Shown here in pieces: positions 30,957 to 33,931 of a DNA stretch of 64,000 nt. The position numbers were made by a program, and so were the translations under genes. Source of the stretch: Kalmusia sp. IMI 367209 (lineage: Eukaryota > Ascomycota > Dothideomycetes > Pleosporales > Didymosphaeriaceae); assembly GCA_027946365.1 (NCBI GenBank), contig JAPEUQ010000017.1, forward strand, positions 62,001 through 126,000. Reading direction: 5' to 3'. The notes under the pieces are model-generated. The model saw only the letters and a list, made by a program, of their open reading frames with translations. It did not search any database and was not told the DNA's origin. Each line of letters opens with the position of its first letter. Position 1 is the first letter of the stretch.

Positions 30957-32303
30957 TCACATATCCCAATTTCTCACAGCATCCTCAACGATCGGCCTGA
31001 TCACCTTTCTCCCCGCGCCAGACTGATGTGTCCAGACCATCTGCCTCGGTGCCAGCTCTTCCGCCCTATGCCACGGCTTCAGCCCCAGGCTCTTGTCGTT
31101 CTCCAGCGCCTTAGACACCGCCTTGAACAAAGCGTCCGCTTGCACTTTATCAATGCGAACATCGTCGCGCACAGTAAGCACTATCTCGCGCATCTTCTTC
31201 TTCTCGCCATCCTTGCCCTTGATCTTGTATTTGTTCAAGCAGACATCGATGTCGACATTGATGGCTGCGGTCCAAGCCGCGTGGACGGCGAACCAATGGA
31301 AGAGCTCGCCGAAGCCGGTCTTTTCAATCTGTTCGTCCAGGGAGTAGGGAATGGATGCGAAGCCAAGGCTGACTGTAGGCGTATTTGGAGACGGAGTGTC
31401 GACGAGATCGCCTTTCCAATCTCGCCTGAGAAGATCGCGGACGCTCAGATCGTCGAGGTCCTTCTTCGCCTCCTTCAGCCAATCGTCAACTGCTTCCATC
31501 TGGTCATATAAATCTTTATCTGACCATCTGCTGCGCGCGAGCACGCGTCTGGAAATATCAATGTCGGTCTGTGTACCAGCTTCCAGGCCCCCAGAATCGA
31601 TCGCTATCGCGGAGAGGATGAGTTCCAGAAGCTCGTGCGGCAGATGATATTCCTCGGGCAGTTTCTCGAATTCATCAAACATCTGGCGCGCTACTAGACT
31701 CGTGCAGCTTGCTACTTTCTCGAAGACGCGAGGCGATGCATCCGGTGCCACGCCCTTGTCCACGTGGTGATCAAAGATACTCAATATCTTCGCCCTGTTC
31801 CATTTGCGGAGTGGCGATGCGTGATCGACAAGCACGATACCTTTCACTTTCAAACTCAATGTCTCTGGGTCCTCAGGTAATTCGTCCATAGTCAATAAAT
31901 CATCATGACCACTTGTCATCTTCGAGTTTTTAAGCGCGAGTTTATTCTCCGGTCTCAAGTCAAGGGCATCCGTCTGTGTCTGTAGTAGAGCAATCGCTTT
32001 CGCCGGATGCGAAGTATTCTGTGTCGAATGCTCCAGGTGATATGCCCAGGTGAGGGCGCTCGTCATGCTATCCAGGTCGCCCGCCTCGTTTCCCATCACG
32101 AAAACCCATTCTGATTGCCGCCCTGCCTGCCAGTCGACAAGAAACTGCTTTTTGGTGTTTCGAGACCATTCAGAGAAGTGCCCGACACCAATTTGCTCCA
32201 TGGGCCCAGCGGCTTTGGTGTCAAGGATGACTTGATGGGGAGGTCGGGATGCTGCCGAGAAGGACGCTAGGAGCGCGGACGGCAATAGTCGCAGGGATTT
32301 CAT
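30957..32303 (-). CDS. Exopolyphosphatase-like DHH/DHHA2 phosphoesterase
   Basis: Single-exon protein of 448 residues related to yeast Ppx1, a metal-dependent enzyme that releases phosphate from the ends of inorganic polyphosphate. Metal-binding motifs are visible: VMGNEAGDLDSMTSAL, IVLVDHASPL, the DHH motif as FDHHVD, and AIDSGGL. The DHHA2 domain fills the C-terminal part (GFASIPYSLDEQIEKTG to the end). The N-terminus MKSLRLLPSALLASFSAASRPP resembles a secretory or mitochondrial targeting sequence. The conserved core starts only at about residue 45, so this may be a compartmentalised member rather than the cytosolic enzyme. Substrate assignment is by family. Confidence 0.9.
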   Translation of the reverse strand: MKSLRLLPSALLASFSAASRPPHQVILDTKAAGPMEQIGVGHFSEWSRNTKKQFLVDWQAGRQSEWVFVMGNEAGDLDSMTSALTWAYHLEHSTQNTSHPAKAIALLQTQTDALDLRPENKLALKNSKMTSGHDDLLTMDELPEDPETLSLKVKGIVLVDHASPLRKWNRAKILSIFDHHVDKGVAPDASPRVFEKVASCTSLVARQMFDEFEKLPEEYHLPHELLELILSAIAIDSGGLEAGTQTDIDISRRVLARSRWSDKDLYDQMEAVDDWLKEAKKDLDDLSVRDLLRRDWKGDLVDTPSPNTPTVSLGFASIPYSLDEQIEKTGFGELFHWFAVHAAWTAAINVDIDVCLNKYKIKGKDGEKKKMREIVLTVRDDVRIDKVQADALFKAVSKALENDKSLGLKPWHRAEELAPRQMVWTHQSGAGRKVIRPIVEDAVRNWDM

Positions 32304-32781: not shown

Positions 32782-32982
32782 CTATAGAATAGTACACTTA
32801 GATGGCAAACCACAAGGCCCCCCTTCCTTTTCATGTTTGCTCTGTTGCGATTGACCTGGTACCGTGGCCTGATGTGTATTCCGCACCCCGTTGACAGCTG
32901 GAGTACCTCCAGTCCCAGGGCCGACTTTGCCAGCTGCCGTGTTCCCCGCTGCCACCGTCTCCTTCTGCCCTGGAGTATCTAG
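32782..32982 (-). other. Predicted stop-readthrough extension with CaaX box
   Basis: Directly after the TGA of the quinone reductase, the same frame continues for 66 sense codons to a TAG at 32782-32784. It encodes a Gly/Pro/Ala/Thr-rich linker (for example TAAGKVGPGTGGTPAV), a polar stretch (QSQQSKHEKEGG) and the C-terminal CGLPSKCTIL. The last four residues, C-T-I-L, form a CaaX box; a terminal Leu favours geranylgeranylation. A second cysteine six residues before the CaaX cysteine could be palmitoylated. Readthrough would give a protein of about 270 residues. No short intron removes the TGA and keeps this frame: candidate GT..AG pairs of 17, 22 and 34 bases are too small and out of phase. 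Function is inferred. Confidence 0.6.
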
Positions 32983-32985
32983 TCA
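32979..32985 (-). promoter_or_regulatory. Leaky stop context TGA-CTAG
   Basis: On the minus strand the stop codon reads AAG TGA CTA G. UGA followed by CUA is the established context for efficient ribosomal readthrough in fungi and animals, used to make peroxisomal isoforms of several metabolic enzymes. Its position between a complete enzyme and an open, CaaX-ending frame makes chance less likely. Confidence 0.65.
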
Positions 32986-33931
32986 CTTGACAGTCTTGCT
33001 GACTGTCTCATAGAATGATCTTCCCTGTATCGTAGCTATCTCGATCTCCCTTGCCGAAGGCTGACGCGACCCATCCGATCCAGCAAAAGTCCCAGCGCCC
33101 CAAGGGCTCCCGCCATGAACCTCACTCAAGTCCGACAGCTGAGCTGCAGGCACGTCAGTCTATCACCCATTCCTCTCTTTAGGATTTACTCACCAAACGC
33201 CTTGGCATACCCAAATGGCACATAGATGATCCCCTGATGCACCAGCGTGCTCAGCGCCGCAATCGCTGTGCTCTCCTGCCCCCCACCCAGTCCGCCCGTC
33301 GACACAAATAAGCCCGCGTACTTCCCGTGATACGAACCTTGCGCCCACTGCTTGCCGGCGCGGTCCCAGAACGTCTTCCCTAGGGTTAAAGTAAGTACAT
33401 TGAACAGAACAAGGAGTAGGTACGTAGGTATTTCAGCTAGATGCTATCGTCTGTTGCCGAAGTGTTCGAACATTCGTCGTAGCCATCTACCGAAGACGAA
33501 CCCACTTTGTACCTCGACATTACTCACACTGAGCGGGGAAGTTGCCGTAGCGCGTGGGAATGCCAAAAAGGAAAGCGTCGAAGGGCTCGAGTTGGGCGGG
33601 GTCGGAGAGGACTTCAACGTCGGTGGGCTTGGGCGGCGCGTGCATTTTGGCAAGCACTTCGTCCGAGAGGGTTTCTTTGACTCTGTTGTGGAGGAGAGGT
33701 TAGTGAGGGGGGAGTGAAGGTGTGGAGAGGACGTACTGGAAGAGAGTCACGGAGCCCCCAGCTTCTTCGATGCCTTTCTTTTCGGCTTCGGCCTGGTGTT
33801 TGGTATTAGTCGGAGGATGCATGTATGAGCTTCAGTGGTGACGGTTGATTGCACACAGTGGAAGCCTCGAAACGTACCAATTGCCTGATGTGGCCGTACA
33901 TCGAATAGTATGCAATCGCAATCTTGACCAT
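32983..33931 (-). CDS. WrbA/Pst2-type flavodoxin-like NAD(P)H:quinone reductase
   Basis: FMN-dependent two-electron quinone reductase of the WrbA family, which includes yeast Pst2/Rfs1/Ycp4 and the fungal allergens Alt a 7 and Cla h 7. It protects against quinones and oxidative stress. Exons 33931-33878, 33792-33737, 33682-33528, 33379-33194 and 33143-32983; introns 85, 54, 148 and 50 bases; 203 residues, the family length. Visible parts are the flavodoxin phosphate loop [90 protein letters not shown] and the end [10 protein letters not shown]. The frame was rebuilt from five short exons, and all junctions are in phase. The stop is TGA followed directly by CTAG, and the same frame stays open beyond it (see the next entry). 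Confidence 0.93.

What the first reader, a model, noticed from the sequence alone, without database searches (positions are those of the whole stretch)
32782..33931. Quinone reductase with a leaky TGA-CTAG stop and a 66-codon extension ending in a CaaX box
Seen: the 203-residue WrbA-type frame ends AAG TGA CTA G. The same frame is then open for 66 codons and ends CGLPSKCTIL before TAG. Known: UGA followed by CUA promotes readthrough in fungi and animals, giving dual localisation of metabolic enzymes, and CaaX boxes direct prenylation. Inferred: a small fraction of ribosomes make a membrane-anchored, prenylated and perhaps palmitoylated isoform, while most enzyme stays soluble. From memory, some yeast paralogs (Ycp4 type) have longer tails with C-terminal cysteines, so the two localisations handled elsewhere by paralogs may here come from one gene. 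No in-phase short intron can bypass the TGA.
Basis: partly seen in the sequence, partly recalled or inferred. Interest (0 to 1): 0.88.

Follow-up and report, generated by a model that had tools for sequence, protein, structure and literature searches.

The report
Quinone reductase with leaky-stop membrane tail
A fungal quinone-detoxifying enzyme ends at an unusually leaky stop codon, and the stretch behind it spells a conserved lipid-anchor tail that other fungi appear to attach by RNA splicing, so one gene probably makes both a soluble and a membrane-bound enzyme.

Summary
A five-exon WrbA-type quinone reductase gene (minus strand) ends AAG TGA CTA G; the frame stays open for 66 codons and ends GGPCGLPSKCTIL-TAG. 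The tail is a homologous module: 29 of 177 fetched proteins carry CGLPxKC-aaX in frame at the same place. The window tail scores 38.8 bits against their profile; the next best of 83,844 window 13-mers scores 6.3. Long and short forms interleave in the tree and one pair is identical over 192 residues, so this is one gene with two ends. In those fungi the tail is probably joined by splicing. Here that route looks closed: no branch-point motif between 33060 and 32782 and no consensus donor between 33060 and the stop, while 4 of 4 real introns have both. UGA-CUA-G, the known high-readthrough context, remains. Best reading: functional readthrough adding a prenylated anchor, a CaaX version of the splice/readthrough mosaic known for peroxisomal signals in fungi. 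No RNA, ribosome or peptide data and no DNA of relatives could be examined.

The parts
32983..33931 (-). WrbA/Pst2-type NAD(P)H:quinone reductase gene, 203 codons, five exons, introns 33877-33793, 33736-33683, 33527-33380, 33193-33144
   Evidence: Splicing restores a protein 84-90% identical to the named nearest homologues (P0002, P0010, P0012, P0018, P0020); NF002999 196.5 bits (cut-off 141), TIGR01755 180.4 bits (cut-off 132.5)
32983..32985 (-). First stop codon TGA
   Evidence: the seven nearest relatives in the tree end at this column (six) or one residue later (P0021)
32979..32985 (-). TGA CTA G, the high-readthrough stop context
   Evidence: context described in PMC4207609 and PMC12233894 (passages); 9 of 2193 TGA in the window
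32981..32986 (-). GTGACT, a possible relic of a 5' splice site GTGAGT around the stop (inferred)
   Evidence: Last residue of 111 of 111 short forms is compatible with an NNG codon, as a stop inside G|TAA or G|TGA would require; inference only
32785..32982 (-). 66-codon in-frame extension: low-complexity linker plus conserved tail
   Evidence: linker 71 residues from QG to GP against 41-66 in 29 long-form relatives
32785..32823 (-). Conserved tail GGPCGLPSKCTIL
   Evidence: 38.8 bits against the profile of 15 distinct relatives' tails; next best in the window 6.3
32812..32814 (-). Invariant upstream cysteine of GPCGLP, possible palmitoylation site (inferred)
   Evidence: Invariant in the 12-row alignment A1
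32785..32796 (-). CaaX box CTIL; Leu at X suggests geranylgeranyltransferase I (recalled rule)
   Evidence: relatives end CVVQ 16, CVIL 6, CTVQ 3, CLIQ 1, CEIM 1, CVIM 1, CVVL 1 of 29
32782..32784 (-). Second stop codon TAG

Best explanation
One gene makes two forms of a cytosolic FMN quinone reductase. Most ribosomes stop at UGA and make the soluble 203-residue enzyme. A small fraction (not measured here) misreads UGA in UGA-CUA-G and adds 66 residues ending GPCGLPSKC-TIL. The last cysteine is prenylated, the upstream one perhaps palmitoylated, and that fraction of the enzyme sits on a membrane, where it could reduce membrane quinones. Shown here: the gene, the stop context, homology of the tail, lack of the usual splice signals. 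Inferred from relatives: the tail is a conserved alternative C-terminus of this same gene. Inferred: readthrough as the route, lipid addition, membrane location, purpose.
For: Tail homology: 29 of 177 fetched proteins carry CGLP.KC; window tail 38.8 bits against next 6.3. The core pattern was found at 2 places in the 42.8-Mb own genome (the reversed control also twice), the other in an unrelated gene, so its in-frame presence within about 200 nt of this stop is not chance. Same gene: long form P0054 (250 aa, on a 1058-nt contig, so most likely a transcript) is 100% identical over 192 residues to short form P0135; P0045/P0092 99.5%; LONG rows need at least 8 changes on well-supported branches of the tree. 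No intron with the usual signals: from 33060 to 32782 no YTNAY branch point and no GTRNG donor before the stop, while 4 of 4 real introns have GTRNGT donors and CTNAY sites. UGA CU(A) promotes readthrough in fungi (PMC4207609, passages); UGA CUA G is called the high-readthrough motif (PMC12233894, passages). The stop position matches that of the nearest relatives, three of whose four named species were looked up as Didymosphaeriaceae. The genome has three separate loci matching prenyltransferase beta subunits.
Against: No RNA, ribosome-profiling or peptide evidence. No Dothideomycete long form with the tail is among the 177 proteins; the third protein search, on the tail region, returned none of 33 candidates at E up to 10, but it also failed to return the known long forms, so it was too weak to count as absence. 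TGA-CTAG is no commoner or rarer in the window than chance, so the context alone proves nothing. Absence of a branch point has some chance probability too: 1.7 CTNAY are expected in that stretch. Codon usage was uninformative: extension frame -0.09 bits per codon, other plus frames -0.26 and -0.17, but a minus frame -0.04, and exon 5's own frame did not win either. No unusual RNA structure after the stop (z -0.59).
Confidence: 0.74

Rival explanations
1. Alternative splicing: a weak, unrecognised intron removes the TGA and joins the tail, as it seems to do in Sordariomycetes.
For: Relatives' long forms look spliced: short KHVG* against long KHDGAK (P0092/P0045), KAFGA* against KAFGGIANG (P0135/P0054). 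In the window 36 in-phase GT-AG pairs of at least 35 nt exist; the best placed start at 33003 (GTCAGC) or 32991 (GTCAAG) and end at ATCAG 32869 (135 and 123 nt), losing only a few residues; a consensus-like donor GTGAGG lies at 33125.
Against: No YTNAY branch point in 33060-32782, where every such acceptor lies (1.7 CTNAY expected by window frequency); no GTRNG donor between 33060 and the stop; GTGAGG at 33125 would cut out at least 49 codons of the enzyme's conserved C-terminal part; the donor at the stop itself (GTGACT) is in phase with only one listed acceptor, GAG at 147 nt.
Confidence: 0.1
2. Relic: the tail was once joined by splicing, the intron decayed in this lineage, and the open frame with CaaX is a decaying leftover that is rarely or never translated.
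For: The linker is longer (71) than in all 29 long-form relatives (41-66), as if a former intron were now included; openness alone is compatible with chance.
Against: GPCGLPSKC matches relatives such as P0054 letter for letter and the CaaX is intact; the stop happens to sit in the strongest known readthrough context (9 of 2193 TGA in the window).
Confidence: 0.13
3. The TGA is a sequencing error or a strain variant, and the gene normally encodes the long form only, like yeast Ycp4.
For: A tail of this kind in the protein itself exists in C. albicans Ycp4 (PMC4556627, passage).
Against: The seven nearest rows of the tree, from four named species and two unnamed contigs, all end at the same column or one residue later.
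Confidence: 0.03

Closest known systems
Cryptic peroxisomal targeting by readthrough or alternative splicing in fungi (Freitag 2012, recalled and as cited in PMC4973966; Stiebler 2014, PMC4207609, passages)
   Same: UGA CU(A) context; short hidden C-terminal targeting signal; mosaic of splicing in some species and readthrough in others
   Different: Signal is a CaaX lipid anchor with an upstream cysteine, not PTS1; enzyme is a WrbA-type quinone reductase; extension 66 codons
Ycp4 of Candida albicans (PMC4556627, passage)
   Same: Flavodoxin-like quinone reductase with a long C-terminal extension ending in CAAX
   Different: There one of four separate genes, tail in the protein itself; here one gene, tail behind a stop codon
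Drosophila Syx17 readthrough extension with predicted farnesylation signal (PMC3840789, passages)
   Same: Prenylation signal predicted in a readthrough extension
   Different: Different protein, kingdom and extension
Pst2 (Protoplast secreted protein 2, PDB 5mp4) and Alt a 7 short forms
   Same: Same enzyme body, 266.9 bits over residues 1-200
   Different: Short forms end at the first stop, no tail annotated

Membership tests
WrbA / NAD(P)H:quinone oxidoreductase type IV | Matches curated family models over their cut-offs | tested here: met
   NF002999 196.5 bits (cut-off 141), TIGR01755 180.4 bits (cut-off 132.5)
Functional translational readthrough | Leaky stop context UGA CU(A) | tested here: met
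   TGA CTA G at 32985-32979; PMC4207609 passages
Functional translational readthrough | In-frame extension with a homologous functional signal | tested here: met
   Tail 38.8 bits against relatives' profile
Functional translational readthrough | Extension cannot be explained by splicing | tested here: inconclusive
   Sequence signals speak against splicing (no branch point, no consensus donor near the stop), but in-phase GT-AG pairs exist and no RNA was seen
Functional translational readthrough | Stop context and frame conserved in close relatives | not testable with these tools
   No DNA of relatives in reach; only the stop position is seen from proteins
Functional translational readthrough | Ribosome or peptide signal past the stop | not testable with these tools
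   No such data
CaaX-box proteins | C-terminal Cys-aliphatic-aliphatic-X | tested here: met
   Ends CTIL; 29 relatives end CaaX-like. The first 'a' is Thr in the window
CaaX-box proteins | Lipid attached in vivo | not testable with these tools
   Prenyltransferase-beta loci exist in the genome, no more
Ycp4-type flavodoxin-like protein with tail in the main frame | Tail in the main open frame | tested here: not met
   TGA separates body and tail
Stop-in-donor alternative splicing (inferred for Sordariomycete orthologues) | Usable donor at the stop and in-phase acceptor with branch point | tested here: not met

The most novel reading that the evidence does not exclude
Across Pezizomycotina the short form's stop codon lies inside a 5' splice site (NN|GTAAGT or NN|GTGAGT), so retention gives the soluble and splicing the lipid-anchored enzyme. 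In Didymosphaeriaceae one base change at donor position +5 (GTGAGT to GTGACT) would both kill the donor and turn TGA-GT into TGA-CT, switching the gene from splicing to readthrough in one step, with the former intron now read as linker. This would explain how fungi flip between the two routes for hidden C-terminal signals.
Probability: 0.3. Interest if true: 0.85.

Novelty: new variant of a known kind. Interest (0 to 1): 0.76.

Why it matters
If true, it extends readthrough-based dual localisation from peroxisomal signals to lipid anchors. It would show that a quinone-detoxifying enzyme family keeps a soluble and a membrane form by three routes: separate genes (yeasts), alternative splicing (Sordariomycetes, inferred) and stop-codon readthrough (here). 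It would also make the evolutionary switch between splicing and readthrough directly testable on one gene, and it may change the annotation of many fungal proteins of the Alt a 7 family that are listed as short forms only.

Tried and rejected
Codon-usage test of the extension: no discriminating power. RNA structure after the stop: ordinary (z -0.59). Paralogue with its own CaaX in the same genome: none seen; the 203-residue query matched only this locus (which scores only the best candidate stretches), PF03358 gave only an unrelated FMN reductase at C25, and the tail pattern elsewhere lies only in an unrelated gene that looks like a membrane SNARE (my reading). Fungal DNA in the viral or prokaryote collections: A1 gave one distant locus; the tail pattern gave 10 stretches with bacterial titles and 1 viral contig, not examined further. 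GAPDH as a readthrough control in the same genome: its stop is TAG GAA, not a known leaky context, so it is no positive control; its 11-codon extension is told under Noticed in passing. No Rfam match in the window at gathering thresholds. Third protein search on the tail region: nothing.

Papers were seen only as search listings and passages, none read whole: passages of PMC4207609, PMC12233894, PMC4359377, PMC4973966, PMC3840789, PMC4556627, PMC6916069, PMC11616006 and PMC10822820. That I found no CaaX readthrough isoform of this enzyme in print rests on the searches only, in an open-licence library. Freitag 2012 is recalled and seen as cited in PMC4973966.

Full report
What is there. The finding lies on the minus strand. 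Joining five exons (introns of 85, 54, 148 and 50 nt, with GTACGT or GTGAGT donors and CAG or TAG acceptors) gives a 203-residue protein. It matches NAD(P)H:quinone oxidoreductase models over their cut-offs and, among solved structures, Pst2 best (5mp4, 266.9 bits). The closest named proteins are from Paraconiothyrium brasiliense (90%), Paraphaeosphaeria minitans (86%), Bimuria (85%) and Karstenula (84%); the first and the last two were looked up as Didymosphaeriaceae. The gene ends AAG TGA CTA G; the frame runs on for 66 codons to TAG and ends GGPCGLPSKCTIL.

Is it more than chance? Open length alone is not: 66 open codons occur in 4.8% of mononucleotide shuffles of the extension and in 17.7% of random window frames, though the 16 long-ORF stops listed in the window are followed by only 0-49 open codons. 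The tail decides it. Two protein searches (120 rows listed of 5777 and of 7931 matches) gave 177 different proteins. Of these, 29 carry CGLP.KC near the C-terminus, 111 are short forms of 200-208 residues, and 37 are others (long algal or fusion proteins, aberrant ends such as P0047 and P0106) that I left out of the comparisons. The named long forms come from Colletotrichum, Fusarium and Neocosmospora, Neonectria, Podospora and other Sordariales, Chaetomium kin and Xylariaceae, all Sordariomycetes as far as I recall; one, P0054, has no species name. Most tails read GPCGLPxKC; the ends are CVVQ 16, CVIL 6, CTVQ 3, and CLIQ, CEIM, CVIM, CVVL one each. A profile of the 15 distinct 13-residue tails gives the window tail 38.8 bits; the next best of 83,844 stop-free 13-mers in six frames of the window gets 6.3. 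A degenerate DNA pattern for the core occurs at 2 places in the 42.8-Mb genome, this one and an unrelated gene; the reversed control pattern also hits twice. The chance that it lies in frame just behind this stop is therefore very small.

Same gene or a paralogue? In a tree of the first 191 residues (141 rows: 29 long, 111 short, the window) long and short forms interleave: the LONG label needs 14 changes, at least 8 forced by well-supported branches (the bootstrap had not settled). P0054 (long, 250 aa) is identical over 192 residues to P0135 (short, 205 aa, Podospora aff. communis); P0045 and P0092 from Colletotrichum are 99.5% identical. P0054 lies on a 1058-nt contig with an uninterrupted frame, which suggests a transcript (inferred; its DNA was not seen). 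The tail is thus an alternative end of one gene. In Sordariomycetes the ends diverge at one point (KHVG* against KHDGAK; KAFGA* against KAFGGIANG), which points to splicing (inferred from proteins). The annotated junctions vary among species, so some may be gene-prediction guesses.

Can splicing do it here? The best placed start at 33003 (GTCAGC) or 32991 (GTCAAG) and end at 32869; a consensus-like donor, GTGAGG, lies at 33125 but would cut out at least 49 codons of the conserved enzyme. From 33060 to 32782, where the acceptors lie, there is no YTNAY branch point (1.7 CTNAY would be expected by window frequency, so the absence is telling but not overwhelming), and no GTRNG donor between 33060 and the stop; all four real introns have both. 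The would-be donor at the stop, GTGACT, is in phase with one listed acceptor only, a GAG at 147 nt. Splicing is therefore unlikely, though rare or unusual splicing cannot be excluded without RNA.

Readthrough. UGA CU(A) suffices for readthrough in fungi (PMC4207609, passages) and UGA CUA G is called the high-readthrough motif (PMC12233894, passages). In the window 9 of 2193 TGA are followed by CTAG, so the context would be met by chance at about 1 in 240 TGA. A review states that fungi show a mosaic, with peroxisomal signals attached by splicing in some species and by readthrough in others (PMC4973966, passages). The present gene fits that mosaic with a lipid anchor in place of a peroxisomal signal. 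Prenylation signals in readthrough extensions have been screened for and predicted before, for instance Drosophila Syx17 (PMC3840789, passages; PMC4359377, passages). In my searches I found no experimentally shown case.

How it would work. Most enzyme is soluble. A small fraction carries the tail, is prenylated at the last cysteine (Leu at the X position suggests geranylgeranyltransferase I, recalled rule), perhaps palmitoylated at the upstream cysteine that is invariant in the 12-row alignment, and sits on a membrane. The arrangement C-G-L-P-x-K-C-a-a-X recalls the tails of Ras proteins (recalled, no call). C. albicans Ycp4, in the same enzyme family, has a ~90-residue extension ending in CAAX, and the family protects that yeast from oxidative stress (PMC4556627, title, start of abstract and passage). 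The own genome holds three separate prenyltransferase-beta loci, as expected of a fungus.

A bolder reading. The last residue of the short form is compatible with an NNG codon in 111 of 111 rows, against 79 and 59 of 111 one and two positions earlier; but 105 and 109 of 111 at the next two positions, and the rows are related, so this is a hint only. It fits stops that lie inside G|TAA or G|TGA donors. In the window the stop region reads AA|GTGACT. A single change of GTGAGT to GTGACT would kill a donor and create UGA CU. The window's linker is longer (71 residues from QG to the tail) than in all 29 long-form relatives (41-66; some of these are shortened by dubious junctions), as if a former intron were now translated. 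This needs DNA of relatives.

Limits. No DNA of any fungal relative was reachable; the third protein search, on the tail region, returned nothing, not even the known long forms; no Dothideomycete long form with this tail was seen; codon usage and RNA folding were uninformative.

Noticed in passing
G000:C27:1592270-1593478 minus (L013), outside the window: The phosphoglycerate kinase gene of the same genome ends SALSSK and its TAA stop overlaps the end of a GTAAGT donor motif; of the AG acceptors tried by script over about 400 nt, one (GGAAG, 52 nt, a weak acceptor) would give an end in ...SRL, a peroxisomal signal type, as in the splicing route reported for Aspergillus nidulans.
   Followed up: partly
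G000:C6:646887-647407 minus (L011, L012), outside the window: The GAPDH gene of the same genome stops at TAG GAA; the frame behind it is open for 11 codons and ends in ...VTPKL, which resembles a relaxed peroxisomal signal, but the stop context is not a known leaky one.
   Followed up: no
window 30957-32303, minus strand: 448-residue ORF downstream of the gene with GNEAGDLDS and DHH motifs; looks like an exopolyphosphatase of the DHH family (my reading, no family search).
   Followed up: no
relatives P0043, P0111, P0163-P0165: Annotated long forms differ in where the junction is placed, some cutting into FYETVAK, which suggests that gene predictors invent junctions to reach the tail; the annotation of this family needs RNA data.
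   Followed up: partly
relative P0106 (Delitschia confertaspora), 226 aa: A protein annotated past the usual stop (SKVNFGGINEVRESVTAGEGPKTKGTA) but without the CaaX tail; perhaps a truncated long form.
   Followed up: no
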